Assembly (NCBI RefSeq): GCF_001591045.1
Contig: NZ_BCUA01000010.1
Coordinates: 1-64,000, forward strand
Source: Sphingopyxis granuli NBRC 100800
GTDB lineage: Bacteria; Pseudomonadota; Alphaproteobacteria; Sphingomonadales; Sphingomonadaceae
Reading direction: 5' to 3'
DNA: 64,000 nucleotides
Under the pieces are notes generated by a model. It ran no database searches. It saw nothing but the letters and a program-made list of their open reading frames with translations, and was not told where the DNA came from. Of this stretch, positions 26,521-48,119 are shown piece by piece; the first letter of the stretch is position 1; the number at the start of each line of letters is the position of its first letter. The translations under genes were made by a program, and so were the position numbers.

Positions 26521-26547
26521 ATGCATGATTGTATCGTAATCATGCAT
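26521..26547. promoter_or_regulatory. Candidate TetR operator, copy 2
   Basis: ATGCATGATT-GTATCGT-AATCATGCAT is a perfect 10-base inverted repeat with a 7-base spacer. It shares the 11-mer TGTATCGTAAT with copy 1. It lies about 86 bases upstream of the TonB-receptor start. Confidence 0.7.
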
Positions 26548-26632
26548 GGCAGCGACCGATAATGACGAGGGGCGCGCCCGACCGGCCAAGCCCGCACCGC
26601 CGTTGCCGGCAAACAGGGAAGGGCTCTTCAAA

Positions 26633-29536: not shown

Positions 29537-29558
29537 AGAACGGGACAGGAGACAGATT

Positions 29559-30737
29559 ATGTCGAAATGGATGCGATCGGCGGCAGTTCTCGCCGCATTC
29601 GGCCTCGCAGCGGCAACCCCGGCGCTCGCGGCGCAAGCGCCCGCCGCGCAGGCGGCGCCCGCACCGGCAGCGGGCGCGTTGATCGAAAGCGGCCCGCTCG
29701 CGCCCGAGTTCGGCCTCGACGGTGCGGCGCAGGCCTTCGCGATCCGCTATGGCTCGACCGACGGCGTCGTCGGCAGCGGCACGGTGCCGGTGACCGCCGC
29801 GCTGTTCACCCCCAAGGGCACGCCGCCCGCGGGGGGCTGGCCGCTGATTGCCTGGGCGCATGGCACCGTCGGCATCGGCGACGATTGCGCGCCGTCGCGC
29901 AACCCGCGCTCGGCGCGCGACCGCACCTATCTCGACCATTGGCTGGGCGAGGGCTATGCCATCGTCGCCACCGACTATCAGGGGCTCGGCGGACCCGGAC
30001 CGCACCCCTATCTCAACAGCCGCGCCGCCGCCTATTCGACCCTCGACGCGGTGCGTGCGGTGCTGGGGGGCGATTTCGGCCTCGCCAACAAGGTGCTGCT
30101 CGTCGGCCAGTCGCAGGGCGCCGGCGCGGCTTTCGCGACGGCGGGCTATGCCGCCGACTATGCGCCCGACGTCAATGTGCGCGGGACGATCGCCACCGGC
30201 CTGCCCAACCTCGCCGTCGCGGGCGCGACGAGCGGCGGCGACGGGGACAAGGTCGATCGCCTGATCGCCTACCTGCTCTACATCGCCTCCGCGGCGGAGC
30301 AGATCGATCCCAGATACGATCCCACGGCGGTGCTGACCGATCGCGCGATGCCGCTCTATCGGCGCGCGGCCGACACCTGCGTCGTCGACATGTTCGGTGC
30401 GGTGGTCGAGGCGGGGCTGACCCGCGCCAACAGTTTCAAGACCGATTTCTGGCGCGCCTATGCGCCGATGCTGACCCACGCCGGCTATCCGACGCTGCAC
30501 ATCGCGACGCCGGTGTTCATCGGCACCGGCGCGGAGGATGTCGACACGCCGGCCGCGATGCAGAAATCGGTCGTCGACGGGGCCTGCGACGCCGGATCGA
30601 CGATCGAATGGCACGTCTATCCGGGGCTCGACCATTCGGGGACGGTCAACCGCTCCTTCACCGATTCGCGCCTCTTCGCCCAGCATGTCATGGCGGGCCA
30701 CGCCATCGCGGGGACCTGTCCGCAGGCCGCCGGCTAG
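29559..30737 (+). CDS. Exported secretory-lipase family alpha/beta hydrolase
   Basis: This is a protein of 392 residues with a signal peptide (about 25 residues, ending near ALAA). It resembles secretory lipases: an oxyanion region around PLIAWAHGTVG, the nucleophile Ser185 in GQSQGAG, a probable acid in GTGAEDVDTP (about 327-336), and the catalytic His in GLDHSGTVN. It probably hydrolyses esters or triglycerides in the periplasm or outside the cell. It is 22 bases after the TonB receptor gene, with GACAGGAGA as ribosome site, so the two form one unit. Cys110 and two later cysteines could give disulfides, as usual in exported lipases. Confidence 0.87.
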   Translation: MSKWMRSAAVLAAFGLAAATPALAAQAPAAQAAPAPAAGALIESGPLAPEFGLDGAAQAFAIRYGSTDGVVGSGTVPVTAALFTPKGTPPAGGWPLIAWAHGTVGIGDDCAPSRNPRSARDRTYLDHWLGEGYAIVATDYQGLGGPGPHPYLNSRAAAYSTLDAVRAVLGGDFGLANKVLLVGQSQGAGAAFATAGYAADYAPDVNVRGTIATGLPNLAVAGATSGGDGDKVDRLIAYLLYIASAAEQIDPRYDPTAVLTDRAMPLYRRAADTCVVDMFGAVVEAGLTRANSFKTDFWRAYAPMLTHAGYPTLHIATPVFIGTGAEDVDTPAAMQKSVVDGACDAGSTIEWHVYPGLDHSGTVNRSFTDSRLFAQHVMAGHAIAGTCPQAAG

Positions 30738-30797: not shown

Positions 30798-32435
30798 CTA
30801 TTCGCGGTCGACGGGACCGGTATTGACGAACCATTGTTCGCCCCTCTGGCGCTGACGCCGCATGATCTCCTCCCGGAATTCGAACATTCCGGGCATGGGG
30901 TCGCGGCGCAGCACCGGCGATGCGCCAAGCTCGAGGAAATATTCCTCCTCTCCATAGGGACGCCAGTCGGGCGCACCGACCGCCGACGGAATGCCGCGCG
31001 CGGCGAAGCTGGACCAATAATCGACCATCTGCCGGGCAAGCCGGCGATCGTCGTCCCCCGTCGCCGCCGGCCAGTTTGCCGCCTGTGGAACGGCGCGACC
31101 GATGCTGCCGAACATGAAGGGAATCTCGCTGGCGTGAAACGCGCACAGCTTCCGCGCCCGCGCGGCGTCGTAGCAATGGTCGAACAGATAGAGATAGGAG
31201 GGGACGCCCGCCACGGTCTGCTGCCGCACGAGCCGCTCGACGGCCCAGCCATAGACGATGTCGCGCGTCGCGGCGATCAGGCTCTCTTCCATGTCGGACG
31301 CGGGATAGAGCCGCAGGAAGGCCGGCGCGAGATCGCCGTAGCGACGGGCGGCCCCCGCGGCATAGGCCGCCGCATCGGCGGGCACCGGGGGCACCAGGCC
31401 GCGCTGGCTCCGCACCTCGCCGCTGTTGAAGCCGGCGAGGACCGGCACCTTGATCTGCTCGCCGCGATCGAAGACGTCGACGATCTGCGCCGGAAGCAGC
31501 GCGCCGTCGATCGTCGGCTGCGCTGCAAAGCGCGCACGCAGCGCCGCGGCGGTCAGCGCTTCGGCGTCGAGGGCGCGAAGGGCGGCGGGATTCTTCGCGC
31601 CGACGCTTTCGGCGAAGGCGGCGCCGATCGCTTCGGCCGACGGCAGGCCGTAGGCCGGATCGCGCAGCCGCGGGACCGCGCGCATATTGGTGCTCTGGAC
31701 GATCGCGCGGCCGAACAGCCCCTTCGCGCGCGGGGCGGCGAGCAGATAGGTGACGCTGAGCGCGCCCGCCGATTCGCCCATCGCGGTGACATTGGCCGGG
31801 TCGCCGCCGAACGCCGCGATATTGCGCTTCACCCATTCGAGCGCCGCGATCTGGTCGAGCAGACCATAATTGCCCGAGACACGATCAGGCGCTTCGGCGC
31901 TGAGCCCCGGGTGCGCGAGCCAGCCGAAGATGCCGAGGCGATAGTTGATCGACACGAAGACGATCCCGCGCTTCGCATATTCGCGCCCGTCGTACATCGG
32001 GCTCGCGCTGCCGCCATGCTGGAGCGCGCCGCCGTGAATCCAGACGATCACCGGCGCGCGCGCCGCGCTGCGCGGCGCCCAGACGTTGAGCGTCAGGCAA
32101 TCCTCGCTCGTCGGACGCGGCGGCTCGAAATAGACGCTGTCGGCGGGATAGGGCGGCTGCACACAATCGGGGCCGAAGGCGTGGGCCTCGCGCGCACCCT
32201 GCCACGAAGCGGGCGGAGCGGGCGGGCGCCAACGACGCACCCCGACCGGCGGCAGCGCATAGGGAAGCCCCTTGAACACCCGGACCCCGTCCTCCAGGCT
32301 GCCGGCGACGCGGCCCTCGGCGACGGTGGCCGTCGGTCGGCCGGAAGCGGCGGCGACGGGAACGGCGAAGGCGGCGAGGGCGCCGAGCAGCGGAGCGCCG
32401 AAGACGAGGGCGAAGGTCCGTCCGGACAGCAGCAT
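30798..32435 (-). CDS. Exported type-B carboxylesterase
   Basis: This is a protein of 545 residues with a signal peptide (about 30 residues). Type-B carboxylesterase features are the segment VFKGLPYALPPVGVRRWRPP, the EDCLTLNVWAP signature, the oxyanion loop VWIHGGAL, the nucleophile Ser222 in GESAG, a Glu in GFNSGEVRS and a catalytic His in AFHASEIPFMFG. It hydrolyses carboxylic esters, probably in the periplasm. It is a close paralogue of the esterase at 40446-42080. It is divergent from the M28-like gene, and a TCAC/GTGAAT inverted element lies between them. Confidence 0.92.
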   Translation of the reverse strand: MLLSGRTFALVFGAPLLGALAAFAVPVAAASGRPTATVAEGRVAGSLEDGVRVFKGLPYALPPVGVRRWRPPAPPASWQGAREAHAFGPDCVQPPYPADSVYFEPPRPTSEDCLTLNVWAPRSAARAPVIVWIHGGALQHGGSASPMYDGREYAKRGIVFVSINYRLGIFGWLAHPGLSAEAPDRVSGNYGLLDQIAALEWVKRNIAAFGGDPANVTAMGESAGALSVTYLLAAPRAKGLFGRAIVQSTNMRAVPRLRDPAYGLPSAEAIGAAFAESVGAKNPAALRALDAEALTAAALRARFAAQPTIDGALLPAQIVDVFDRGEQIKVPVLAGFNSGEVRSQRGLVPPVPADAAAYAAGAARRYGDLAPAFLRLYPASDMEESLIAATRDIVYGWAVERLVRQQTVAGVPSYLYLFDHCYDAARARKLCAFHASEIPFMFGSIGRAVPQAANWPAATGDDDRRLARQMVDYWSSFAARGIPSAVGAPDWRPYGEEEYFLELGASPVLRRDPMPGMFEFREEIMRRQRQRGEQWFVNTGPVDRE

Positions 32436-32492
32436 GTCTTTCGTTCCTCTTCCCGGCGGCGATGCTTGCCATCGCCCGCCCGTCGATTTACG

Positions 32493-32509
32493 CTCACAAG
32501 AGAGTGAAT
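32493..32509. promoter_or_regulatory. Candidate operator, TCAC-N6-GTGAAT, site A
   Basis: CTCACAAGAGAGTGAAT lies in the 112-base divergent gap between the esterase (start 32435) and the M28-like gene (start 32548). It matches site B before the SDR gene at 14 of 17 bases, including both outer halves. It could regulate both flanking genes. Confidence 0.6.
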
Positions 32510-32547
32510 ATCAAGTGCGGACGAACGGACGACGGGAGAGGTGCAGC

Positions 32548-33855
32548 ATGACGGATCCGACGCGACGCGGCTTCCTGGTCGGGGCGGCGGCGCTGCCCCT
32601 TACCGCCCCGGCCGCAGCAGCCCATGACGCAGGCGCGGCCGACTCGATCGCCGCCGATCTCGCGACCTACATCGACTTCGGCAACAAACAATCGGGCGGC
32701 CCCGGTGACGACGCCTGCGGTCATTGGCTTGCGGACGAACTGGCGCGCGCGGGTTTCGCGACCGAAAAGCCGGCCCTGTCCGTCCCCTGGTTCGAACCGG
32801 GCAAATGCGAGATCGCCGCCGGCGACGCGCGCGCGCCGCTCCATCCCCAGCCGATCGTGATCCCGACGCCCGCGGGCGGCGTGTCGGGGCCGCTGGTCCG
32901 CGTCGATGCCCACGGCCGCGCCGATGCGCCGCTGGCCGGGGCGGTCGCGCTGGTCGATCTGCCCTATGGCCGCTGGTCCTCGGCGCTGGCCAGGCCGGTG
33001 CGCGCACCCATCGATGCGGCCTTCGCAGGCGGAGCGAAGGCCGCGGTGATCGTCACCAACGGTCCGACCGGCGGCGTCATCGCGCTCAACGCCGATGGCC
33101 GCACGCCGATGTTCGCGGGGCCGGTCGGCCTGCTCGCGCCCGCCCGGGCTGCCCCCTTCCTCGACGCGGCGATGCGACACGACACAGCCACGGTAACGCT
33201 GACCGGGCGCGGCGGTCGCCGGCCCGCCTTCAACATCATCGGCCGGCTCGATCGCGGCAAGGGGCGCTGGATCACCATATCGACGCCACGTTCGGGCTGG
33301 TTCGGCTGCGCCGGCGAGCGCGGCGGCGGCATCGCGGCGTGGCTCGACCTCGCCCGAACCGCCCCCGCGCTGCTGCCCGACCACGACCTCGCCTTCCTGT
33401 GCAACAGCGGGCATGAATATGAGAATCTGGGCGCCGAGGAATCGCTGAAGGCGGTGGCGCCGAAACCGGCGGAGACGCATTTCTGGCTCCACCTCGGCGC
33501 CAATGTCGCGGCGCGCGACTGGCACGAAGGGCTGTTCGGGCTGGCCCCGCTGAGCGGCGCGGATTCGCAGCGCTATCTGGTCGCCAGCCCGCCGCTGCTG
33601 CCCGCCGCGCGCCGGCTGTTCGCGGGACTGGCGGGACTCGAAAACCCCTATTCCAGCGAAGCGCTGTCGGCGGGCGAACTGACCGCGATCATCGCGGCAG
33701 GCTATCCATCGGTGGCGGGAGTCTTCGGCGTCCATCGCTTCCACCATGTCGAGGGCGACGACGAACGCTGCGTCGACGCGGCAAGCGTCGCCGCAGCGGC
33801 GGCGGCTTTTCGCGAACTGCTGCTGGTGGCAGTCGGCCGAAACAGCGCGCGCTAG
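32548..33855 (+). CDS. Tat-exported M28-like protein with degenerate metal site
   Basis: This is a protein of 435 residues with a twin-arginine signal (TRRGFLVGAAALPL). The middle (about 95-205) resembles a PA-type insert. The core (about 230-330) aligns with M28 aminopeptidases: ITISTPRSGWFGCAGERGGGIAAWLDLAR and FLCNSGHEYENLG sit where M28 has HxDS, GAxDxxSG and EE motifs. The first His/Asp pair reads PRS and the second ligand reads GERGGG, so several zinc ligands are missing or changed. It may be a non-peptidase relative or use other ligands. GGGAGAGG precedes the ATG. It is the only plus-strand gene among its neighbours. Confidence 0.65.
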   Translation: MTDPTRRGFLVGAAALPLTAPAAAAHDAGAADSIAADLATYIDFGNKQSGGPGDDACGHWLADELARAGFATEKPALSVPWFEPGKCEIAAGDARAPLHPQPIVIPTPAGGVSGPLVRVDAHGRADAPLAGAVALVDLPYGRWSSALARPVRAPIDAAFAGGAKAAVIVTNGPTGGVIALNADGRTPMFAGPVGLLAPARAAPFLDAAMRHDTATVTLTGRGGRRPAFNIIGRLDRGKGRWITISTPRSGWFGCAGERGGGIAAWLDLARTAPALLPDHDLAFLCNSGHEYENLGAEESLKAVAPKPAETHFWLHLGANVAARDWHEGLFGLAPLSGADSQRYLVASPPLLPAARRLFAGLAGLENPYSSEALSAGELTAIIAAGYPSVAGVFGVHRFHHVEGDDERCVDAASVAAAAAAFRELLLVAVGRNSAR

Positions 33856-33944
33856 CTTGCATCACCCAAATCCGTTCGTGTCGAGCAGGATGGCGAGTCG
33901 GATATTCGACGCAGCATCTTTGGTGTGGTGCCACCGGAAAGCTT

Positions 33945-34027
33945 CGTCATTGCGAGCGGCGAAGTCGCGCGGCAATCCAGAGCAGGCGGTCACCGCTCTG
34001 GATTGCTTCGCTCCGCTCGCAATGACG
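33945..34027. repeat. Dispersed inverted-repeat element
   Basis: CGTCATTGCGAG at 33945-33956 is mirrored by CTCGCAATGACG at 34016-34027, and GGCAATCCAGAGC / GCTCTGGATTGC lie inside. The unit of about 83 bases can fold into one long stem. It has the form of a dispersed repeat seen in many alphaproteobacteria. It sits between the 3' ends of the convergent M28-like and GH1 genes. Confidence 0.8.
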
Positions 34028-34056
34028 CAAGGGGGCAATCCCAAGCCAATCGAAAT

Positions 34057-35385
34057 CTAGATGCGATTGGCACGGGCAATCGCGCCCAGGTGCCAGGCGC
34101 TCGGGCGCGGCGTGCGCCTGAAGCTCTGCCGGTCGACTGTGGCGAGCCCGAACGGGATCGAATAGCCCGACGTCCACTCGAAATTGTCGAGGAGCGACCA
34201 ATAGATATAGCTGTGGACCGCGATCCCCTCGTCGAGGCAGGCCCTCACCCCGTCGAGCGCCTGGTCGATGAAGGCGATGCGGCGCCGGTCGTCGTTCACG
34301 GCGACGCCGCTTTCGGTCACATAGATCGGCTTGCCGATCGCGCGGTGGGCCCATCGGATCGTGTTCGCGAGCGCCTGCGGATAAAATTCATAGCCCGACA
34401 GCGTCAGTTCGGCGCCCGCTGGCGGCGCGACCATCCCGCGCTCGTCGAACCGCAGGCGGGTGTAGCATTGCACACCGAAGAAATCGGAATGGGTGCGCGC
34501 GACGTCGATCCAGTCGCCGTACAGCTGCCGCTCGTAATGCGCGACCAGCGACGGCGCGCCCGTCGACTGGATATCCTGCGTGGTCAGCGTGATCCCCACC
34601 GGCAGGTCGGGCCGCGCGGCCTTGATCGCGTCATAGGCCTGACGGTGCGCTTCCTGCAGGATCGGCGTCGCGATCGCGGGATCGGCGAAGGCGAGACGCG
34701 AGAAGCGCGGCGACCCGGTGGCGGCCACGGCCGCGGCATTCGCTTCGCGGGTCAGCTTCATCGCCGCTTCGGACCTAGGGAAAAGCGCGACCAGCAGGCC
34801 GATGTTCGCCTCGTTGAACGTCGTCGCCAAATGCATCAGGCCGCCGAGCCGCTCGGCGACGGTACGGCAATAGCGCGCGAAGAAGCGGGGCGCGTCGTCG
34901 ACCTCGAATCCGCCGCGAGCGGCGAACCACAGGGGCGTCGTGAAATGGTTGAGCGTGACGATCGGCCGCAACCCGCGCGCGCGGCACGCCTCCAGCATGC
35001 GCGCATAATGGTCGAGCACGGCGTTCGAGACATGGCCTTCGCTTGGTTCGATGCGCGCCCATTCGATGCCGAACCGATAGCAGTTGAAACCCAGCCGTTC
35101 GGCAAGCGCGAAATCCTCGTCGAAGCGATGATAGCTGTCGCATGCGTCGCCCGACCGGTCCCGAAACAGGGTCGGCGTGACATTCTCTGCCAGCCAGGCG
35201 TCGCTGTTCGTGTTGTTGCCCTCGCTCTGATGCGCCGAGATCGCGGTGCCCCAGAGGAAGCCGGGCGGCGCCGGCCGTCGCGCCGCCAGCGCCGGCGCGC
35301 TTCCCAGCAGCGCGGGCGCCGCCGCCGCCCCTGCGGCCGCCCGCATCAGGTCGCGCCGCCCGATCGATCCGTCCGCTTCGGCCAC
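34057..35385 (-). CDS. Tat-exported glycoside hydrolase family 1 protein
   Basis: This is a protein of 442 residues with a twin-arginine signal (IGRRDLMRAAAG). The GH1 fold is shown by GFLWGTAISAHQSEG at the start, CYRFGIEWARIEP, TLNHFTTPLW, the acid/base Glu192 in TTFNEAN, the nucleophile Glu358 in YVTESG, and SLLDNFEWTSGYSIPFGLATVD near the end. Both catalytic residues are intact. GH1 enzymes remove beta-linked glucose or similar sugars, and export by Tat is uncommon among them, so it probably attacks a glycoside in the periplasm. It is the last gene of the run, 15 bases after the MFS gene. Confidence 0.92.
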   Translation of the reverse strand: MAEADGSIGRRDLMRAAAGAAAAPALLGSAPALAARRPAPPGFLWGTAISAHQSEGNNTNSDAWLAENVTPTLFRDRSGDACDSYHRFDEDFALAERLGFNCYRFGIEWARIEPSEGHVSNAVLDHYARMLEACRARGLRPIVTLNHFTTPLWFAARGGFEVDDAPRFFARYCRTVAERLGGLMHLATTFNEANIGLLVALFPRSEAAMKLTREANAAAVAATGSPRFSRLAFADPAIATPILQEAHRQAYDAIKAARPDLPVGITLTTQDIQSTGAPSLVAHYERQLYGDWIDVARTHSDFFGVQCYTRLRFDERGMVAPPAGAELTLSGYEFYPQALANTIRWAHRAIGKPIYVTESGVAVNDDRRRIAFIDQALDGVRACLDEGIAVHSYIYWSLLDNFEWTSGYSIPFGLATVDRQSFRRTPRPSAWHLGAIARANRI

Positions 35386-35400
35386 GGCCCTTCTCCCTCG

Positions 35401-37065
35401 TCAGGCTTCGATATCGCGCTTGTAGGTTTCGGGCAGGAAGAAGATGCCGACGACCGCGGTGATGGCGGCGATCACCACCGCATACCACAGCCCCTGATAG
35501 ATATTGCCCGTCGCCGCGACCATCGCGAAGCCGATCGTCGGCATGAAGCCGCCGATCCAGCCGTTGCCGATATGATAGGGCAGCGACAGCGAGGTATAGC
35601 GGATACGCGCCGGAAACAGTTCGACCAGCAGCGCCGCAAGCGGGCCATAGACCATCGTCGCGAGCAGGCCGAAGACGCAGAGGATCGCGATCACCCGCCC
35701 CTTGTCGACCGCGGCCGGATCGGCGGCGGCGGGATAGCCGGCGCGCGAAAGCCCGGCATGCACTTCTTCCTGGAACGCCGCGATCGCCTGGGCCTTCGCC
35801 TCGCCCTTCAGCTTCGCGGGGTCGGGCGCGGTGTGGCTCTCCTCGCCGATCCGCACCGTCGCGACCGTGCCCGGGGGCGCATCGACATTGGCGTAGTTGA
35901 TCCCGCCGCGCGCCAGATAGGCCTTGACGATGTCGCAGCTCGTCCGGTCGAAGCTGTTCTTGCCGATCGGGTCGAACTGGAACGAGCATTCGCGCGGGTC
36001 GGCGACGACCTGCACCGGCGCATGCTCGACCGCCGCCGCCATCGCCGGATTGGCCGCGGCGACCAGCGCCTTGTAGAGCGGGAAATAGGTGAAGACCGCG
36101 ATGACGCAGGCGGTCATCATGATCGGCTTGCGCCCGATCCGGTCGCTGAGCCAGCCGAAGAAGACGAAGCTGGGAATGATGATCAGCAGCGCGGTGGCGA
36201 CGAGGAAATTGGACGTCGCCCCGTCGACCTTCGCGATCTTCTCAAGGTAGAAAAGCGGATAGAGATGCGCGGCGAAGCCGATCACCGCCTGCCCCGCCAC
36301 CGCCCCGAACAGCGCGATCAGCACGATCTTCAGGTTGCGCCATTCGCCGAAGGCCTCCTTCAGCGGCGCCTTCGACGTGGCGCCCGCCTGCTTCATCCGC
36401 TGGAAGACCGGGCTTTCCTCTAGCTGGAGCCGGATCCAGAGCGCGATCGACAGCAGCACGATCGAGAAGATGAAGGGAAGGCGCCAGCCCCAGGCATTGA
36501 AGCTGTCGGCATCCATGAACAGGCGCAGCGACACGACGAAGGTCGATGCGAGGATTAGGCCGATCATCGCCGTGGTCTGGATGAAGCTGGTGTAGAAGCC
36601 GCGCTTTCCCGGCGGGGCATGTTCGGCGATGTAGACCGCCGCGCCGCCATATTCACCGCCGATCGCGAGCCCCTGGAGCAGGCGAAGCAGCATCAGGATG
36701 ATCGGCGCGGCGATTCCGATCGTGTCGTAGGACGGCAGGAAGCCGACCGCGAAAGTCGACAGCCCCATGATCGCCATGGTGACGAGGAAGGTGTTCTTGC
36801 GCCCGACGATGTCGCCGACCCGCCCGAAGACGAGCGCCCCGAACGGCCGGATCGCGAAGCCGGCGGCAAAGGCCATCAGCGCGAGTATGAACCCCGTCGT
36901 CTCGTTGACGCCCGCGAAGAAATGCATCGAGATCGCGCTCGCGAGCAGGCCGTAGAGGTAGAAGTCATACCATTCGAACACCGTCCCCAGCGACGAGGCG
37001 GCGATGACGAGAGTCTCGTTCTGGCCCTTGCCTTCGGCGGGCAGGGTTTCGCTGTCGGTTGCCAT
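35401..37065 (-). CDS. MFS transporter, metabolite:H+ symporter (MHS) type, with large soluble insert
   Basis: This is a protein of 554 residues. The N-terminal half is a standard MHS carrier: SSLGTVFEWYDFYLYG, RPFGALVFGRVGDIVGRKNTF, LRLLQGLAIGGEYGGAAVYIAEHAP. A soluble insert of about 110 residues (about 350-455) with two cysteines (ECSF and TSCD) interrupts the helices. The last four helices follow, with YGPLAALLVELFPARIRYTSLSLPYH. MHS members carry organic acids, betaines or aromatic acids. In this operon it probably moves the hydrolysis product across the inner membrane. It is 72 bases after the SDR gene. Confidence 0.9.
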   Translation of the reverse strand: MATDSETLPAEGKGQNETLVIAASSLGTVFEWYDFYLYGLLASAISMHFFAGVNETTGFILALMAFAAGFAIRPFGALVFGRVGDIVGRKNTFLVTMAIMGLSTFAVGFLPSYDTIGIAAPIILMLLRLLQGLAIGGEYGGAAVYIAEHAPPGKRGFYTSFIQTTAMIGLILASTFVVSLRLFMDADSFNAWGWRLPFIFSIVLLSIALWIRLQLEESPVFQRMKQAGATSKAPLKEAFGEWRNLKIVLIALFGAVAGQAVIGFAAHLYPLFYLEKIAKVDGATSNFLVATALLIIIPSFVFFGWLSDRIGRKPIMMTACVIAVFTYFPLYKALVAAANPAMAAAVEHAPVQVVADPRECSFQFDPIGKNSFDRTSCDIVKAYLARGGINYANVDAPPGTVATVRIGEESHTAPDPAKLKGEAKAQAIAAFQEEVHAGLSRAGYPAAADPAAVDKGRVIAILCVFGLLATMVYGPLAALLVELFPARIRYTSLSLPYHIGNGWIGGFMPTIGFAMVAATGNIYQGLWYAVVIAAITAVVGIFFLPETYKRDIEA

Positions 37066-37137
37066 ATCCTTCTCCCTTTCTCCCGGCAGCGGCGGCGGGC
37101 TCTTTCGCCGGCCCGTCCGCCCTGCTCCCGGGGATTG

Positions 37138-38037
37138 TCAGCGGTTGACCGCCATCGTCGGCGCGGTGAAGCCGGCGCTCGTCAGTTCGCGCTCGGCCTG
37201 CGTGAAACCATAAGCGGGAACGATCTCTCCCCGCCGATCCGAAATGCGGTCCCATTCGGAGATGACGCGCAGCGCGGCATCGTCGTCGCGGCCGATAAAG
37301 GCGCCATCGGTCAGCGTGACGTTCGCGGTCGCGAAATGGCCGGCGCCCGCGCACAGGATCGTGCGCGTCGGGGCATCGTCGCCGACCAGCGCGAGCAGGC
37401 CCGGACTCACCGCCTCGGGCGCCAGATGGGCGAGCGCGTCGGGCGCCAACACGCCGTCGGTCATCCGGGTCGCCGCGGTGGGCGCGAGGCAGTTGACGCG
37501 GATGCCATATTTCTCGCCTTCGAGCGCGAGCGTCTGCATCAGCCCGACGAGCGCCATCTTCGCGGCGCCGTAATTGGCCTGCCCGAAATTGCCGTAGAGG
37601 CCCGACGAGGATGTCGTCATCACGATGCGGCCGTGGCGGCGCTCGCGCATCTGGTCCCACACCGCCTTGGAACAGGTGGCGGCGCCCATCAGGTGGACGT
37701 CGACGACGAGGCGGAAGTCGGCAAGGTCCATCTTGGCGAAGCTCCTGTCGCGCAGGATGCCGGCGTTGTTGACCAATATGTCGATGCCGCCCCAAGCCAT
37801 GGTCGCGGCATGGACCATCGCCGCGACCTGCTCCGCGTCGGTGACCGACGCCGGCGCCGCCATCGCCCGGCCGCCCGCGGCCTCGATCTCGGCAGCGACG
37901 CGCTCGGCGGCGGCGCCGTCGCTGTCGTTGACGACGACGCACGCGCCATGGCGCGCCAGCATCAGCGCATGCGCCCGGCCGAGCCCTCCGCCCGCACCGG
38001 TCACGATCGCCACTCGATCCTGCAATGCCTTCGTCAT
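37138..38037 (-). CDS. SDR-family dehydrogenase, (3R)-hydroxyacyl-CoA dehydrogenase-like
   Basis: This is a protein of 299 residues. The NAD-binding TGAGGGLGRAHAL, NNAGILRDRSFAKMD, the active Ser in TTSSSGLYGNFGQ and the YGAAK pair (Tyr and Lys) are all typical SDR residues. The ILRDRSF motif and the C-terminal extension are found in the dehydrogenase part of peroxisomal multifunctional enzyme 2 and bacterial relatives, which oxidise 3-hydroxyacyl-CoA or steroid-like alcohols. The start at 38037 has GAGGGGCAGG ahead. A TCAC/GTGAAT element lies 30 bases upstream. Its role is probably oxidation of an intermediate after the CoA ligase. Confidence 0.87.
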   Translation of the reverse strand: MTKALQDRVAIVTGAGGGLGRAHALMLARHGACVVVNDSDGAAAERVAAEIEAAGGRAMAAPASVTDAEQVAAMVHAATMAWGGIDILVNNAGILRDRSFAKMDLADFRLVVDVHLMGAATCSKAVWDQMRERRHGRIVMTTSSSGLYGNFGQANYGAAKMALVGLMQTLALEGEKYGIRVNCLAPTAATRMTDGVLAPDALAHLAPEAVSPGLLALVGDDAPTRTILCAGAGHFATANVTLTDGAFIGRDDDAALRVISEWDRISDRRGEIVPAYGFTQAERELTSAGFTAPTMAVNR

Positions 38038-38067
38038 CCTGCCCCTCTCGTTATCCGATCTACTATA

Positions 38068-38086
38068 ACTCACTTGTGAGTGAATG
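38068..38086. promoter_or_regulatory. Candidate operator, site B
   Basis: ACTCAC-TT-GTGAGT is a perfect 6-base inverted repeat (38068-38081), extended to GAATG. It lies 30-49 bases upstream of the SDR start and 51 bases past the tetR stop. The shared pattern with site A is CTCAC-N2-G-N-GAGTGAAT. Confidence 0.65.
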
Positions 38087-38136
38087 AAAATTGAAACAGA
38101 CGGGAGACGGGAAAGCGCCCCACCCCGCCCGCTTGA

Positions 38137-38832
38137 CTAGGCTCCATCCTTTGCGCGCTGTTCGCAGATATCGCGAAAGCCCGCCGCCATGAAGCGCGCC
38201 ATGCGCTGCTTGACCGCCGCATAATCGTCCGACCGGCAAAGTCCCTGCGACAATTTGTCGATGCGGCCGGTGCGCGCGAGCGTCAGCATCAGCGCCCCGG
38301 TGACGAAGTGATAGCCCCAGAAGATGTCTTCCTCCGCCGCCTCGGGCAGCGCCTTCTTCAATATGCCGATCAGCCGTAGCACGACCGGGTCGAAATGGGC
38401 GTCCATCATCCCGGCGCCCCATTCGGGCGTGTTCGCCACCTGCGCGCTGAGCGCCCCATAGTTGCGCCAGCCCTCGCCGCCCTCGATATAAAGGTCGAGG
38501 TCGGTGTCCAGAAAGGCATGGAGCGCGCCCTCGATCGTCGGCTTTCCCCCCGACGCCCGCTCGTAATCGTCGAGCACCTTCATGCGGCGCTCGCTCGTCA
38601 CCACCGCGCGGCGGGCGAACACCGCATCGAACAGCTTCTTCTTGTCCTCGAAATAATAGTTGAGCAGCGTGTGATGCACGCCCACCCGCTTGGCGACATC
38701 CTTGAGCGTCACTCCGTAAAGGCCGTTGCGCGAAAAGAGATATTCGGCGGTGTCGAGAATCTGCTCGATCGTTTCGGCGCGCTGCTCCGCTTTCGATGGC
38801 CGTTTCGTCCGACTCTTTGCCTTGGACTCCAA
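38137..38832 (-). CDS. TetR/AcrR family transcriptional regulator of the catabolic cluster
   Basis: This is a protein of 231 residues. The basic N-terminal tail leads into the TetR helix-turn-helix, with ILDTAEYLFSRNGLYGVTLKDVAKRVGVHHTLLNYYFEDKKKL (about 25-68). The C-terminal domain is helical and of unknown ligand. The start is a TTG at 38832, preceded by GAGAGGA, eight bases away; no better ATG exists. It lies between the acyl-CoA ligase gene and the SDR gene, 51 bases after the ligase stop. It is the best candidate for binding sites A, B and C. Confidence 0.88.
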   Translation of the reverse strand: MESKAKSRTKRPSKAEQRAETIEQILDTAEYLFSRNGLYGVTLKDVAKRVGVHHTLLNYYFEDKKKLFDAVFARRAVVTSERRMKVLDDYERASGGKPTIEGALHAFLDTDLDLYIEGGEGWRNYGALSAQVANTPEWGAGMMDAHFDPVVLRLIGILKKALPEAAEEDIFWGYHFVTGALMLTLARTGRIDKLSQGLCRSDDYAAVKQRMARFMAAGFRDICEQRAKDGA

Positions 38833-38883
38833 ATCTCTATTCCTCTCGAAACCTTCGTTCGCAGGGCGGCGGGGCCTTTCGGC

Positions 38884-40445
<1,562 letters not shown>

Positions 40446-40449
<4 letters not shown>

Positions 40450-42080
40450 TGGCAGCCCTCGGTCTTCGCCGGCAGCGGCGGCGACGCGACGCCGATATTC
40501 CAGTTCCATGGCACGTCCCCGGCGGCACGGCGGCGGCAGACGACCGCCTCGTGCAGCGCCGCCGTGCCAGGAAACAGATTGTGCCCGGCGCGCGGCGTGT
40601 CGGCGATGTGCAGGAAACCGCGATTGTCGGCATAATCGGGCCAGTCGGGCCCGCCCTTTGCAATGGGTCGGCCGGTCGCTGCGAAGCTGGCCCAGTAATC
40701 GCCGATCGCGGCGATCAGCCTGCGCTCGGCCAGGCTGTCCGGAATCTTCGGCCACAGGGGCGGCGTCCGCGCCGCGGTCCCGAACACGTAGGGCAGCTCG
40801 GCGGCGTGGAAAGCGTGGAGATTCCACTGCGCGGTCGCGGGATAGCCATGGTCGAAAAGATAGAAATAGGCGCCCTGCCCCAGCGCCGCCTGGTTCGACA
40901 CCAGCCGCTCCGAGGTCCAGCCATACATGGCGTCGCGCGTCGCCGCGAGCATGCTTTCGCCGATATCCTTCGCCGGATAACGGGCGAGGAAGGCGTTGGC
41001 GAGTTCGCCATAGTTCGCGCGGATCGTGGCTTCATAGGCGGCCGCGTCGGCGGGAGGTTTGGGCAGCAGGAACCGCAGCGAGCGAATCTCGCCGCTGTTG
41101 AAGCCGGCGAGAATCGGCACCGGCGCCTGTTCGTCGCGATCGAAGGTGTCGACGAGCTGGCGCGACAGCGTCTTGCCGTCGATATTGGGAAAGGGGAAAT
41201 AGCCCGTCGCGGCGACCCGGGCCGGGATGTCGGCCGCCGGCAATGCGCGCAGCGCCGCGATGTCGGCGGCACCGAGCTTCGCCGCAAGTTCGGCGCCCTG
41301 CACCTCTGCAGGGACCATGCCGTTGATCCGGTCGCGCAGGCCGGGCGCGGAGACCATATAGGCGCTCTGCGCCACCGCCTTGTGGAACAGCCCGCGCGCC
41401 GCCGGAGCCGCCATCAGATACATGACGCTGAGCGCGCCCGCCGATTCCCCGGCGATGGTGACATTGCCCGCATTGCCGCCGAAGGCGCCGATATTGCGCT
41501 TCACCCATTCGAGCGCCGCGATCTGGTCGAGCAGACCGTAATTGCCCGAGACATGGTCGGGCGATTCCGCACTGAGCCCCGGGTGCGCGAACCAGCCGAA
41601 CATGCCGAGACGATAGTTGATCGACACCACGACGATGCCGCGCCGCGCGAGCGCGCTGCCGTCGTAAATGGGGTCGGCGCCCGACCCCGACGCCAGCGCG
41701 CCGCCGTGGATCCAGACGAAGACCGGCGCGCCGCGCGCATCCTGCGGCGCCCAGATGTTGAGCGACAGGCAATCCTCGCTCATCGCCGGCAGGTCCCAGC
41801 CATAGATGCTGGGCGCCTGCGGCTTCGGCTGCATGCAGGCGGCGCCGAAGCGGGTGGCATCGCGGGTGCCCTCCCAACGCGTCAGCGGCGCCGGCGCACG
41901 CCAGCGGCGCTCGCCGACGGGCGGCTCGGCATAGGGGATGCCGCGAAAGACGCGCAGATCGCGGTCCTGCACGCCGCGCACGACGCCCGCGGGCGCATCG
42001 ACCGCCGGTTCCGCGGCCGCGGCGGCCGCCCCCGGGAGGAGGACGGCCAGAACGAGAGCGAGGGTCCGCAGGCGACGCAT
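40446..42080 (-). CDS. Exported type-B carboxylesterase, paralogue of the 30798 gene
   Basis: This is a protein of 544 residues with a signal peptide (about 23 residues, ending near AAAA). It has the same motif set as its paralogue: RVFRGIPYAEPPVGERRW, EDCLSLNIWAP, VWIHGGAL, the nucleophile Ser213 in GESAG, a Glu in GFNSGEIRS and a His in AFHAAELPYVFG. Cysteines near 82 and 104 match the usual disulfide. The start at 42080 has GAAGGAAG ahead and a good signal. It follows the TonB receptor by 26 bases and overlaps the CoA ligase by four, so one mRNA carries receptor, esterase and ligase. Confidence 0.93.
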
Positions 42081-42106
42081 GGGCGGCTTCCTTCTTCCGG
42101 CGCCGA

Positions 42107-44410
42107 TCAGAAGCGATAGTCGGCGCGGACGCCGATCGTGCGCGGCCGCAGGCGGGCGTAGCGCCCGTCGAGGAAGGCTTCGGGATGGACATAGGTGATC
42201 GATGTGTCGTCGAAGAGATTCTCGACATAGGCGGTCAGATTCAGCGCCCCCAGCTTCGCCCCGGCGAACAGGTTCACATTGGTCCACGCCTCGGTATGGT
42301 CATACGTCGGGCTGACCGCGTTGGGATTGCCCGGCACGTTCGGGAACTGGTTCGGGAAGGACCCGGCGTGCGATACGTTGACCGACCCGAAGGCGGTTTT
42401 CCCGTTGCCGATCGGGAAATCGTACCGCAGCGTTCCCGATCCCTGGAAATGCGGCGAGGCAAGCCGGGTGCCCAGCTCGGCACCGGAGATCGCCGCCTCG
42501 ATCGCGGACAGCTTCGTCACCTTCGCCTCGTTGAACGAGCCGTTGAGCACGAGACTCAGCCCCGAAAGCGGCCGCGCCATCACTTCGAACTCGAGGCCAT
42601 AGCTTTCCGCAGCGCCGATGTTGGTCGCGAACTGGATCGAATCCGACACGCGGTTCGCCTGGACCTGGATATTCTTCCAGTCGATATAATAGCCCGCAAG
42701 ATTGGCGGTCAGATTGCCGCCCAGCCAGCGCCCCTTCAGCCCGACCTCATAATTGGTCACGCTGTCCGACTTCGCGCCGTCGGGTATGACGATGTCGCTG
42801 GGGTTGATCGTGCTGACCAGCCCCGCGCGCGCGTTGACCACCGGGGTACGGAAACCCGTCGAAACCGTCGCATAGGCGGTCAGTTCGGGCACTGGTTTCC
42901 ACGAGACGCTGGCCTTCCACGACAGGCGGTCGTCGGACACTTTCAGCCCTTCGGCGTAGGGAATCGGGTCCCTGCGCATGACGACATTGTTCCAGCCGGG
43001 CGTGGCGCCGACCGCCAGATAGCCGAACTGCGGAAGCGCAGCGACGACATAATTATAGCCGCCGCCCCGGGTGAAGGTCTGGACGTCCGTCTTGCCATAG
43101 CGCAGCCCGCCGGTGACCCAGAAATTGTCGCTGAGATGCGCCGTCACCTCGCCGAAGCCGGCGATCTCCCTCTGGTCCGTATAGCTGTTGAAACGCTGAT
43201 AATACTCATTTTCCATGCCGATGATATTGCGCTGGGCGATGAATTCGAGTGACGAGCGATAGGCGAAATCGACGGTCCGCCGTTTGTCGTAGTAGAAAAA
43301 GCCCGCAACCCATTCGATCGGCCCGCTGTGGCGCGACACCAGCCGTGTCTCCTGAACGAAAAGATCGTCATAGCCATAGGCGTCGAGCGCGAAGGGAAAA
43401 GCCTGTGCGAAAGTTCCGGCGAGGTCGACATAGAAGGACGCGTCATAGTCGGACAGCGTCGTCGAACTGACCAGCTCGGCGAAATCGAACTCGTAATTGA
43501 CCGTGATATTATAGTTGGTGAGCTTGCCCTGGAACAGGTCGGGACGGTCGGAGTTGCGCACGAACTTGCCAAGGGTGGGGTTGGTCAGCGCCGAATCGGC
43601 CGGCTTGCTGTTCTCGTAGGAGACGAGCAGCTTCACCTTCATCCGGTCGCTCGGCCGCATTAGCAGGATCGCGCGTCCGCCGAAGGCTTCGAGGCTGTTC
43701 GAATCCTTGATACCGGTGCCGATATTGTCGACCCAGCCGTCCTCGTTCCGATAATAGCCCGAGACGCGCAGACCCATTTCGTCGGTCATGATCGGCAGGT
43801 TGACCATCGCATTGTAGCGCTGGCGCAGCGAGCCCGAACCGACGACGCCCAGGTCGACGCTCGCCGATCCCTCGAACTTGCTGAGGTTGGGACTGCGGGT
43901 GATGATCCGCATCGCGCCGGCGAGCGAGTTGGAGCCGAACAGCGTCCCCTGCGGCCCGCGCAGGAATTCGACGCGTTCGACGTCGTAGAGATTCGGATCG
44001 AGGATGGTCGAGTTGCCGTTCGCCGAGATCGGCAGTTCGTCGACATAGATGGCGACCGCGCTCTGCAGGCCGGCGCTGTAACCGTTGGTGTTGATGCCGC
44101 GGCTGGTGAAATTGTTGAAATTCTGCGTCGGCCGGTTGACGACGATGCCGGGCGTGTTCTGGGCGATGCCCTCGTAACCGACGATGCCCAGATCATCGAG
44201 TTCCTCCTGCCCGAAGGCAGAGACGCTGAGCGGCACGTCCTGAAGCCGCGCGGTACGGCGCGTCGCCGTGACGATGATGTCGTTGTCGCCGCGATTGCTT
44301 TGCGCGGAGGAAGCGGCCGGCGCCTCATCCTCCGTGACCTGCGCCATGGCCGAGACCGGAAGCGCGAACAGGGCGACCGCCGAGGCGGACGCGAAAAGCT
44401 GAGCCTTCAT
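42107..44410 (-). CDS. TonB-dependent outer-membrane receptor
   Basis: This is a protein of 767 residues. A signal peptide of about 23 residues (ending SAMAQ), a TonB box-like DNDIIVTATRR, and a plug domain (about 50-170) with NTPGIVVNRPTQNFNNFTSRGI and DVERVEFLRGPQGTLFGSNSLAGAMRI are followed by the barrel, which ends in YRF. The size and QDVPLSVSAF segment match sphingomonad receptors found with catabolic genes for sterol- and aromatic-like compounds, by memory only. It is the first gene of the minus-strand cluster, and site C lies about 85 bases upstream. No STN domain is present, so it does not signal to a sigma factor. Confidence 0.93.
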   Translation of the reverse strand: MKAQLFASASAVALFALPVSAMAQVTEDEAPAASSAQSNRGDNDIIVTATRRTARLQDVPLSVSAFGQEELDDLGIVGYEGIAQNTPGIVVNRPTQNFNNFTSRGINTNGYSAGLQSAVAIYVDELPISANGNSTILDPNLYDVERVEFLRGPQGTLFGSNSLAGAMRIITRSPNLSKFEGSASVDLGVVGSGSLRQRYNAMVNLPIMTDEMGLRVSGYYRNEDGWVDNIGTGIKDSNSLEAFGGRAILLMRPSDRMKVKLLVSYENSKPADSALTNPTLGKFVRNSDRPDLFQGKLTNYNITVNYEFDFAELVSSTTLSDYDASFYVDLAGTFAQAFPFALDAYGYDDLFVQETRLVSRHSGPIEWVAGFFYYDKRRTVDFAYRSSLEFIAQRNIIGMENEYYQRFNSYTDQREIAGFGEVTAHLSDNFWVTGGLRYGKTDVQTFTRGGGYNYVVAALPQFGYLAVGATPGWNNVVMRRDPIPYAEGLKVSDDRLSWKASVSWKPVPELTAYATVSTGFRTPVVNARAGLVSTINPSDIVIPDGAKSDSVTNYEVGLKGRWLGGNLTANLAGYYIDWKNIQVQANRVSDSIQFATNIGAAESYGLEFEVMARPLSGLSLVLNGSFNEAKVTKLSAIEAAISGAELGTRLASPHFQGSGTLRYDFPIGNGKTAFGSVNVSHAGSFPNQFPNVPGNPNAVSPTYDHTEAWTNVNLFAGAKLGALNLTAYVENLFDDTSITYVHPEAFLDGRYARLRPRTIGVRADYRF

Positions 44411-44488
44411 ACAAACTCTCCCTCCCGTTGGCGGTCGTTGCCGCCGAACCGTCCTTCTTATCCGTCACATTCTCGAATGAGTCAACAT

Positions 44489-44508
44489 TCACTATCACGC
44501 GCGTGAAT
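44489..44508. promoter_or_regulatory. Candidate operator, site C (looser match)
   Basis: TCACTATCACGCGCGTGAAT contains TCACGCGCGTGA, a perfect 12-base palindrome (44495-44506), and ends in GTGAAT like sites A and B, but its halves are four bases apart rather than six. It lies about 80-100 bases upstream of the receptor start. Confidence 0.45.
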
Positions 44509-47248: not shown

Positions 47249-47263
47249 TGTATTCCCCCGATA

Positions 47264-47280
47264 TTGCGAATAATTAGCAA
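47264..47280. promoter_or_regulatory. Fur-box-like palindrome
   Basis: TTGCGAATAATTAGCAA pairs at 7 of 8 positions around a central A, and its GAATAATTA core resembles the 7-1-7 Fur operator. It is 16 bases upstream of the receptor start and about 58 bases upstream of the response-regulator start, so it could control both by iron. Confidence 0.6.
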
Positions 47281-47337
47281 GAATGTCGGGGCGCGACCTG
47301 ATGCCAAGCGGGCGTCCGGTCAATCCGGAATGCGCGA

Positions 47338-48117
47338 ATGACAGGCAGGAGCAACACTTTGTTACAATTGGCGCCAGGCGACCGGCCGGTCCGGATACCG
47401 GCTATCGCGCACCACATCGTCATCGTCGACGACGATGCGGGCGTCCGCACACTGCTCGCCCGCATCCTGCGCGAATGCGGCTACGACGTGACCGGCGCCG
47501 CCGACGGCCGCGAACTGGAGGCCGCCATGACCGAGCGTCCGGTCGATCTGGTCCTGCTCGACATCATGCTGCCGGGCGAAAGCGGCCTCGACATCTGCCG
47601 CATGGTGCGGGCGCGCAGCCAGGTCCCGATCATCATGATCAGCGCCCGCGGACAGGAAAGCGACCGCGTCACGGGCCTGGACATGGGCGCCGACGACTAT
47701 ATCGCCAAGCCGTTCGGCCGGGCGGAGGTCCTTGCACGCGTGCGTGCGGTGCTGCGCCGCATCAGCGACCCACACGTGCCGCTCGACATTCCGGCGCCGG
47801 AGCAATTCGACTTCGCCGGCTGGCGCTATCATTCGCGGCGCTGCGAGCTGATTTCGCCGTCGGGCGCGGAGGTCGAGCTGACCGCGGCGGAGCATGAACT
47901 GCTGCTGGCGCTCCTGCGCCATCCGCAGCGGATGATCGGCCGCGAACGGCTGATCGAGATGACGCGCAGCCGGATCGGCACGCCGAACGACCGCAGCATC
48001 GACGTGCTGATCAGCCGCCTGCGCCGCAAGCTGGGGGACGGACGGAAATCGCGGCCGATCATCCGCACGATCCGCGGCGGCGGCTACATGCTCGCGGTCG
48101 ACGTCCGCGCCGACTGA
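47338..48117 (+). CDS. OmpR-family response regulator
   Basis: This is a protein of 259 residues. The receiver domain (about 26-140) has the acidic pair DDD near 31-33, phospho-acceptor Asp75 in LLDIMLPG, and KPFGRAEVLARV with the conserved Lys. The winged-helix DNA-binding domain (about 165-255) ends in RTIRGGGYML. It is followed by the sensor kinase only two bases later, so they form an operon. It is divergent from the siderophore-type receptor, with 89 bases between the starts, and probably controls that receptor. Confidence 0.94.
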   Translation: MTGRSNTLLQLAPGDRPVRIPAIAHHIVIVDDDAGVRTLLARILRECGYDVTGAADGRELEAAMTERPVDLVLLDIMLPGESGLDICRMVRARSQVPIIMISARGQESDRVTGLDMGADDYIAKPFGRAEVLARVRAVLRRISDPHVPLDIPAPEQFDFAGWRYHSRRCELISPSGAEVELTAAEHELLLALLRHPQRMIGRERLIEMTRSRIGTPNDRSIDVLISRLRRKLGDGRKSRPIIRTIRGGGYMLAVDVRAD

Positions 48118-48119
48118 CG

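What the first reader, a model, noticed from the sequence alone, without database searches (positions are those of the whole stretch)
30798..44410. Nine-gene uptake and degradation locus for an unknown acylated or glycosylated compound
Seen: one receptor, two paralogous exported esterases, an acyl-CoA ligase coupled to one of them, a TetR gene, an SDR dehydrogenase, an MHS carrier with a large insert, a Tat-exported GH1 glycosidase and a Tat-exported M28-like protein, mostly in one orientation. Known: each family's usual role. Inferred: the receptor imports a glycoside or ester, esterases and the glycosidase strip it in the periplasm, the carrier moves the core inside, and the ligase and dehydrogenase start its oxidation. 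I do not recognise this exact set as a described pathway.
Basis: partly seen in the sequence, partly recalled or inferred. Interest (0 to 1): 0.8.

Follow-up and report, generated by a model that had tools for sequence, protein, structure and literature searches.

The report
TetR-controlled locus for an acylated glucoside
A soil and water bacterium carries a shared, repressor-controlled set of genes that seems to import an ester (sometimes also glucose-linked), cut it outside the cell interior and burn the released acid; the compound itself is still unknown but can now be tested for.

Summary
The nine genes are real and mostly as described. Spacing suggests TBDT1-EstA-ligase-TetR, SDR-MHS-GH1, and divergent EstB and M28-like. 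All three promoter regions carry a 20-bp palindrome, TTCACTCACnnGTGAGTGAA. In 34 TetR-centred loci, 50 of 50 sites lie just upstream of locus genes; a reversed-pattern control gave 0. So this is one TetR regulon, not a chance neighbourhood. The core (TonB receptor, type-B carboxylesterase, acyl-CoA ligase, TetR, usually an HSD17B4-like SDR and an MFS carrier) recurs, often shuffled, in Sphingomonadaceae, Caulobacter and one Stenotrophomonas. GH1 is optional: in 1 of 28 TetR-centred core loci. Yet all 15 genomes tested with an unlinked GH1 hold the TetR, and three unlinked GH1 genes have the operator at their own promoter. The M28-like protein has the M28 fold but altered catalytic residues. 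Best reading: uptake, periplasmic de-esterification and, where GH1 is present, deglucosylation of an acylated compound; the freed acid is imported, CoA-activated and degraded by beta-oxidation chemistry. The substrate is unidentified. The listings of ten literature searches showed no described locus with this set.

The parts
42107..44410 (-). TBDT1, TonB-dependent outer-membrane receptor (767 aa)
   Evidence: Pfam Plug and TonB_dep_Rec_b-barrel; orthologues at the same place in relatives
44488..44507 (+). candidate TetR operator at the TBDT1 promoter, TTCACTATCACGCGCGTGAA (4 mismatches to consensus)
   Evidence: sites upstream of TBDT1 in relatives
40446..42080 (-). EstA, exported type-B carboxylesterase (544 aa), Ser-Glu-His triad apparent
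   Evidence: Pfam COesterase; GESAG and alignment; PDB neighbours 8wdm, FumD 8s6d
38884..40449 (-). acyl-CoA ligase (AMP-forming), ATGA overlap with EstA
   Evidence: Pfam AMP-binding and C domain; nearest PDB 6ihk; sequence
38137..38832 (-). TetR repressor with TetR_C_30 domain
   Evidence: matches in 37 of 397 family genomes at E<=1e-60
38065..38084 (-). candidate TetR operator at the SDR promoter, TTCACTCACAAGTGAGTTAT
   Evidence: near-identical sequence at this promoter in relatives
37138..38037 (-). SDR, HSD17B4/MFE-2-like (3R)-hydroxyacyl-CoA dehydrogenase (299 aa from ATG)
   Evidence: best PDB 2et6, 1zbq, 1gz6; relatives in beta-oxidation operons
35401..37065 (-). MHS-family proton symporter with a large insert that is common in the class
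   Evidence: TIGR00883 350 bits, below its cut-off; insert also in other genomes
34057..35385 (-). GH1 beta-glucosidase-like enzyme with Tat signal; optional module, 15 bp behind MHS
   Evidence: Pfam Glyco_hydro_1; PDB 6ier, 4r27; co-occurrence with TetR
32548..33855 (+). M28-fold protein with Tat signal and altered catalytic site
   Evidence: AlphaFold model pLDDT 79; M28 matches Z up to 26.6; site substitutions
32489..32508 (-). candidate TetR operator between divergent EstB and M28-like, TTCACTCTCTTGTGAGCGTA
30798..32435 (-). EstB, exported type-B carboxylesterase (545 aa), paralogue of EstA
   Evidence: 53% to EstA; triad

Best explanation
This is a dedicated TetR regulon for growing on an ester whose alcohol part is, in some strains, a beta-glucoside. 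TBDT1 brings the compound through the outer membrane. EstA and EstB cut ester bonds in the periplasm; Tat-exported GH1, where present, removes glucose. The MHS carrier (an ACS-type MFS in many relatives) brings the freed carboxylic acid into the cell by proton symport. The ligase makes its CoA thioester. The HSD17B4-like SDR oxidises the 3-hydroxyacyl-CoA stage, and a thiolase (BktB-like, next to the locus in some relatives) releases acetyl-CoA. TetR represses its own operon, the SDR operon and the EstB/M28 promoters through the 20-bp palindrome and is probably released by a pathway acyl or acyl-CoA compound. The M28-like protein shares the regulon but is likely not a standard peptidase. Shown by computation: gene set, palindromes, conservation, co-occurrence. 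Inferred: repressor binding, compartments, direction of transport, every chemical step and the inducer.
For: Operators: same palindrome at the TBDT1 and SDR promoters in three same-genus genomes and at EstB/M28 in the two that have it. 50 hits in 34 TetR-centred loci, all intergenic and just upstream of locus genes, in 29 of 34 loci; 0 for the reversed pattern (one locus, L154, was itself fetched through an operator hit, without it 48 of 48 in 33 loci). 0 of 4 loci with TetR paralogues under 65% and 0 of 3 off-locus M28 paralogue loci had a hit. Shuffles gave about 2 against 80 observed in 54 sequences (window not shuffled; L154-L156, fetched through operator hits, give 4 of the 80). Whole genomes: 42 sites at <=3 mismatches in 22 of 33 genomes, 38 at the locus, 4 elsewhere, 3 control sites. 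Gene set: of 33 loci with TetR>=65% in the family survey, 30 have the ligase, 29 EstA, 22 SDR; all 28 with TetR, ligase and esterase have a TonB receptor and 22 an MHS or MFS carrier. Beta-oxidation: SDR best matches are MFE-2 enzymes; BktB-like thiolase near 4 of the 28 core loci; L169 also has isocitrate lyase and malate synthase, L185 a FadB-type enzyme; R. etli holds FadB-SDR-ACAD-SDR-BktB around the SDR homologue. GH1: 15 of 15 genomes with unlinked GH1 have TetR at 69-82%, against 37 of 397 family genomes with any match at E<=1e-60; operator 43-80 bp upstream of unlinked GH1 in L060, L073, L085.
Against: No substrate, no expression data. GH1 is missing from 27 of 28 TetR-centred core loci and from 9 of 11 same-genus loci that carry the M28-like gene. 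The window's genome has no orthologue of the relatives' acyl-CoA dehydrogenase (best 40%) or BktB (best 45%), so later steps must use other enzymes. 17 of 30 GH1-centred loci with TetR, and 5 of 34 TetR-centred loci, have no operator at <=4 mismatches; 11 of 33 genomes have none at <=3. Of 17 unlinked GH1 loci only 3 have an operator at <=4 mismatches near the start, 5 more at 5 mismatches, 9 none. Co-occurrence counts are not corrected for kinship, and the TetR base rate in Caulobacteraceae was not measured. Identity cut-offs are mine.
Confidence: 0.62

Rival explanations
1. The acid is aromatic: the locus handles hydroxycinnamoyl or other phenolic esters (chlorogenate-like or acylated flavonoid glucosides); ligase and SDR start CoA-dependent side-chain shortening to an aroyl-CoA.
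For: Tannase/feruloyl-esterase family gene in L168; Rieske, FAA-hydrolase and LigB-type genes a few kilobases downstream of EstB in S. terrae L053; the GH1 relative SGR_2426 hydrolyses pNP-glucoside (PMC12369401, passages).
Against: Ring-cleavage-type genes were met in one locus only, though neighbours were annotated for a minority of loci; thiolase plus isocitrate lyase and malate synthase beside L169 suggest acetyl-CoA as a main product.
Confidence: 0.22
2. The substrate is a steroid or terpenoid ester or glycoside, and the HSD17B4-like SDR acts on the ring system or side chain.
For: SDR resembles 17-beta-HSD type 4; a sphingomonad bile-acid cluster holds a TetR, a CoA ligase and an esterase-like alpha/beta hydrolase (PMC12882949, passages read).
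Against: No steroid-ring gene among those annotated here; the bile-acid passages name other palindromes and no SDR in that cluster; HSD17B4 is itself a 3-hydroxyacyl-CoA enzyme (2et6 title).
Confidence: 0.1
3. A detoxification locus like the fumonisin cluster: the esterases disarm a fungal or plant toxin ester and catabolism is secondary.
For: FumD is among the best PDB sequence matches of both esterases and comes from Sphingopyxis (PMC10746191, passages read).
Against: No aminotransferase (FumI) among the genes scanned; broad conservation with a CoA ligase, SDR and carrier points to carbon use; similarity to FumD is family-level only.
Confidence: 0.1
4. GH1 is a hitch-hiker that landed in the operon and has no part in the pathway.
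For: Absent from 27 of 28 TetR-centred core loci.
Against: TetR present in 15 of 15 genomes tested with unlinked GH1; operator at the promoter of three unlinked GH1 genes; a type-B carboxylesterase gene lies in 13 of 20 same-genus GH1 stretches.
Confidence: 0.08

Closest known systems
Fumonisin degradation (fum) cluster of Sphingopyxis sp. MTA144
   Same: Exported type-B carboxylesterase (FumD) releasing acid side chains, in the same genus; FumD is a top PDB match of EstA and EstB. That its cluster also holds a TonB receptor and dehydrogenases is recalled, not read.
   Different: fumI aminotransferase has no counterpart; here a CoA ligase, HSD17B4-like SDR, MHS carrier, TetR operator system and optional GH1.
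MFE-2 / HSD17B4 (3R)-hydroxyacyl-CoA dehydrogenases (PDB 2et6, 1zbq)
   Same: SDR aligns along most of the dehydrogenase domain, sharing the NAGILRDRSFAKM and YGNFGQANY stretches.
   Different: Single-domain 299-aa bacterial enzyme in an ester-uptake operon; substrate untested.
GH1 beta-glucosidases of the BGL167 / Bgl1317 / SGR_2426 group
   Same: Best PDB matches 6ier, 4r27, 8kap; that 4r27 is BGL167, a ginsenoside enzyme, is recalled.
   Different: SGR_2426 sits with a beta-1,2-glucan ABC transporter and lacks a signal peptide (PMC12369401, passages); here GH1 has a Tat signal and lies under an ester-locus TetR.
Sphingomonad bile-salt side-chain cluster bsd I (Caenibius tardaugens)
   Same: TetR, CoA ligase, esterase-like hydrolase and a transport-related gene (passages).
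   Different: Has acyl-CoA dehydrogenase and MaoC hydratase; its palindromes differ; no SDR is named in that cluster in the passages.
M28 aminopeptidases and the M28 fold of transferrin receptor
   Same: Whole-length fold match, Z 26.6 to B. subtilis BSAP and 22.5 to transferrin receptor.
   Different: First zinc-ligand motif and catalytic Glu replaced.

Membership tests
Type-B carboxylesterase (EstA, EstB) | COesterase domain with Ser (GESAG)-Glu-His triad | tested here: met
   Pfam E 1.7e-102 and 6.4e-99; GESAG and conserved GFNSGE and FHA(A/S)E(L/I)P in both
Type-B carboxylesterase (EstA, EstB) | Ester-hydrolase activity | not testable with these tools
   needs purified enzyme
GH1 beta-glucosidase | GH1 domain with acid/base and nucleophile Glu | tested here: met
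   Pfam E 1.3e-57; NEA and TESG motifs in place of the usual NEP and TENG (usual forms recalled)
M28 peptidase | M28 fold | tested here: met
   fold matches, Z 26.6
M28 peptidase | HxD zinc motif and catalytic Glu | tested here: not met
   Aligned to PaAP: HLD to PRS, first Glu of the EE pair (changed in the E340A mutant 8acg) to His; both seen in 16 of 18 aligned sequences
HSD17B4/MFE-2 (3R)-hydroxyacyl-CoA dehydrogenase | Closest to MFE-2 dehydrogenase domains, with SDR YxxxK site | tested here: met
   top four PDB matches all MFE-2/HSD17B4, E<=3.3e-57; next best 1.4e-45
HSD17B4/MFE-2 (3R)-hydroxyacyl-CoA dehydrogenase | Activity on 3-hydroxyacyl-CoA | not testable with these tools
   needs assay
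Fumonisin (fum) cluster | Carboxylesterase plus FumI aminotransferase | tested here: not met
   Pfam scans of the nine genes and the neighbouring lipase name no aminotransferase
TetR-type local regulon | Regulator gene in the locus and a conserved palindrome at its promoters | tested here: met
TetR-type local regulon | Regulator binds the palindrome | not testable with these tools
   needs gel shift or footprint
MHS metabolite:H+ symporter | TIGR00883 subfamily model | tested here: inconclusive
   best model but 350 bits, below the 443 cut-off, perhaps because of the insert

The most novel reading that the evidence does not exclude
An undescribed, widespread pathway, with its own TetR and operator code that also reaches unlinked glucosidase genes, for acylated glucosides whose acid is an (R)-3-hydroxy acid, for instance from fungal glycolipids. 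This would explain why a ligase and an MFE-2-type 3-hydroxyacyl-CoA dehydrogenase are the recurring cytoplasmic steps while an acyl-CoA dehydrogenase was found in only 1 of 28 core loci.
Probability: 0.15. Interest if true: 0.75.

Novelty: new variant of a known kind. Interest (0 to 1): 0.52.

Why it matters
It turns a list of nine plausible genes into a defined regulon with a proposed operator, recurring in several families. That gives a direct handle: a TetR reporter can screen compounds to find what sphingomonads and caulobacters take up through one of their many TonB receptors of unknown substrate. It also suggests that the glycosidase and the esterases belong together by regulation even where they are far apart on the chromosome.

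Tried and rejected
First calls at the M28-like gene used the wrong strand (32494-33747 minus) and at the lipase a wrong frame (29567); both gave no Pfam hit and were replaced by 32548-33855 plus and 29559-30737 plus.

The MHS insert was considered as a special feature and rejected.

GH1 as a core gene was rejected after the M28-centred and TetR-centred surveys, then restored as an optional regulon member.

A wider regulon was looked for with whole-genome operator scans; off-locus sites are at control level (4 against 3; in G008 two of four sites lie outside its two loci). Those scans allow 3 mismatches, so weaker trans sites such as the 4-mismatch one at L060 would be missed. Two of the 33 genomes (G185, G189) went in by mistake; they are not among the TetR matches and had no site.

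Ten literature searches showed no paper with this gene set; only listings were read (one search listed 15 of 23), and passages of PMC12369401, PMC10746191, PMC7142613, PMC4843849 and PMC12882949. Most subscription papers are not held.

TetR on plasmids: no match at 1e-50. Only the M28-like protein was modelled and fold-searched.

Left out of counts: L155 and L156 (stray operator hits, not loci); L154 from the 37-locus gene tally but kept in the 34-locus operator tally. Not all matches were fetched (G403 was not). G030, with an M28-like match of 77%, was not fetched. Of 17 unlinked GH1 loci of 65% or more, L077 and L080 were not tested; L098 and L114 (62-63%) were left out.
Full report
What is there. 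The window lies in a 4.26-Mb, 181-contig genome. Spacing suggests TBDT1-EstA-ligase-TetR as one operon (EstA and ligase overlap by ATGA), SDR-MHS-GH1 as a second, and EstB and the M28-like gene as a divergent pair.

One regulon. The sequence shows a palindrome upstream of the SDR and between EstB and the M28-like gene, and a weaker one upstream of TBDT1. In two same-genus genomes the TBDT1 and SDR promoters hold the same element, and the EstB/M28 promoter does in the one that has that pair, giving the consensus TTCACTCACnnGTGAGTGAA. In the window's genome the only sites with up to 3 mismatches are two in the locus, with none for the reversed pattern; the TBDT1 site has 4. In 34 loci centred on a TetR of at least 65% identity, 50 sites with up to 4 mismatches were found in 29 loci. 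All 50 are intergenic and just upstream of a locus gene, though intergenic DNA is only 11.6% of the bases by my gene calls; the reversed pattern gave 0. One of the 34, L154, was fetched because of an operator hit; without it the count is 48 of 48 in 33 loci. Ten M28-centred loci gave 25 sites, 24 upstream of locus genes. Loci of more distant TetR paralogues (0 of 4) and off-locus M28 paralogues (0 of 3) gave none. GH1-centred loci of named genomes with the TetR gave 18 sites in 13 of 30, all intergenic; those without the TetR gave 7 sites in 49, three of them in front of GH1. Whole-genome scans of 33 genomes gave 42 sites in 22 genomes, 38 at the locus and 4 elsewhere, against 3 control sites. 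Binding by the TetR is inferred, not shown.

How far it is conserved. In 11 other same-genus loci (L021, L022, L141-L149) the order TBDT1-EstA-ligase-TetR-SDR-MHS is the same, at 76-88% protein identity where each gene was called; L145, on a 9.9-kb contig, lacks SDR and MHS calls. Other same-genus genomes (L025, L154, L091) and other genera keep much of the set but shuffle it. A TetR search in 397 family genomes found 37 with a match at E<=1e-60 in 21 of 96 genera, and in 385 class genomes 4 at E<=1e-80, including the own one. Of 37 loci fetched around the family matches (not every match was fetched), 33 hold a TetR of at least 65%; of those, 30 have the ligase, 29 EstA, 22 the SDR, 21 TBDT1 and 11 another TonB receptor. 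MHS (9) and an ACS-like MFS carrier (15) tend to stand in for each other, which hints at an organic acid as cargo. Named relatives include Sphingopyxis, Sphingomonas, Caulobacter and Stenotrophomonas nitritireducens, the last with GH1, SDR, TetR, ligase, EstA, carrier and TBDT1 together.

Fate of the acid. The SDR's four best PDB matches are all MFE-2/HSD17B4 enzymes. Its relatives on plasmids sit with acyl-CoA dehydrogenase (Novosphingobium) and, in Rhizobium etli, also with a FadB-type enzyme and BktB; in Tistrella such genes lie about 4 kb or more away; in Sphingopyxis sp. 113P3 a thiolase, TetR, adenylate-forming enzyme and hydrolase are close. A BktB-like thiolase lies near 4 of 28 core loci, in L169 with malate synthase and isocitrate lyase, and L185 adds an acyl-CoA dehydrogenase and a FadB-type enzyme. 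So the acid most likely ends as acetyl-CoA. The window's own genome has no orthologue of the relatives' acyl-CoA dehydrogenase (40%) or BktB (45%), so it must use other enzymes, or the acid already bears a 3-hydroxyl. The last point is the basis of the novel case and is inference.

The glycosidase. GH1 of 81-82% identity is found in 2 of 59 other same-genus genomes. It is absent from 9 of 11 same-genus loci with the M28-like gene and from 27 of 28 TetR-centred core loci. But among 79 GH1-centred loci from named genomes, 30 have a TetR of at least 65% within reach, 21 of them with ligase and esterase too. Seventeen further loci with GH1 of 65% or more have no such TetR nearby; 15 of their genomes were searched and all 15 hold a TetR, best match 69-82%. 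In 12 of the 15 the TetR locus has ligase and esterase; of the other three, one has the ligase only, on a 4.8-kb contig, and two have esterases only. Three unlinked GH1 genes (L060, L073, L085) have the operator 43-80 bp upstream, five more only a 5-mismatch form (three of these 39-83 bp upstream), and nine none. GH1 is therefore an optional but probably co-regulated part, and the substrate is probably a glucoside at least in those strains. Kinship was not corrected for.

Extra hydrolases in relatives. DUF3089 (8 GH1-centred loci), GDSL, tannase-family and PHB-depolymerase-family genes occur beside some loci. These suggest that ester bonds of several kinds are cut.

The M28-like protein. The model (mean pLDDT 79, pTM 0.79) matches M28 aminopeptidases along most of its length. 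Aligned to P. aeruginosa PaAP, HLD reads PRS and the catalytic Glu reads His. Sixteen of 18 aligned sequences share STPRSGW and N(S/T)(G/A)HEY; the two distant ones (L191, L192) keep HTD. It is either a non-peptidase or an enzyme with a different mechanism.

Against known systems. The nearest described locus is the fumonisin cluster, which shares an exported type-B esterase of the same family in the same genus but has an aminotransferase not seen here. Bile-salt cluster bsd I shares a TetR, a CoA ligase and an esterase-like gene but not the palindromes. The listings of ten literature searches showed no paper with the same set. Verdict: a real, conserved, single-regulator uptake and catabolic locus of a familiar general kind, in a combination not found described, for a still unknown acylated compound.

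Noticed in passing
33945-34045: Inverted dispersed repeat between GH1 and the M28-like gene; its 29-bp arm has 46 matches at up to 3 mismatches (26 plus, 20 minus) in the genome, several as facing pairs, 0 in the control.
   Followed up: partly
26546-30737: TonB receptor followed by a secretory-lipase-family (PF03583) gene on the plus strand, converging on EstB: a second receptor-hydrolase pair without the palindrome.
   Followed up: partly
44879-49454: Another TonB receptor divergent from a response regulator and sensor kinase pair, next to the locus but without the palindrome.
   Followed up: no
L199:4895-14832: Plasmid of Sphingopyxis sp. 113P3: thiolase, MFS, alpha/beta hydrolase, two SDRs, TetR, adenylate-forming enzyme and a TonB plug gene beside an IS3 element, an analogous set.
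   Followed up: partly
L182:3803-5371 and relatives L176, L180, L183, L187: FG-GAP-repeat protein beside a second MFS and EstB, with another SDR in most, in a few related loci; role unknown.
   Followed up: no
L021-L040: GH1 of this group has a type-B carboxylesterase in 13 of 20 same-genus stretches, mostly without the TetR being found there.
   Followed up: partly
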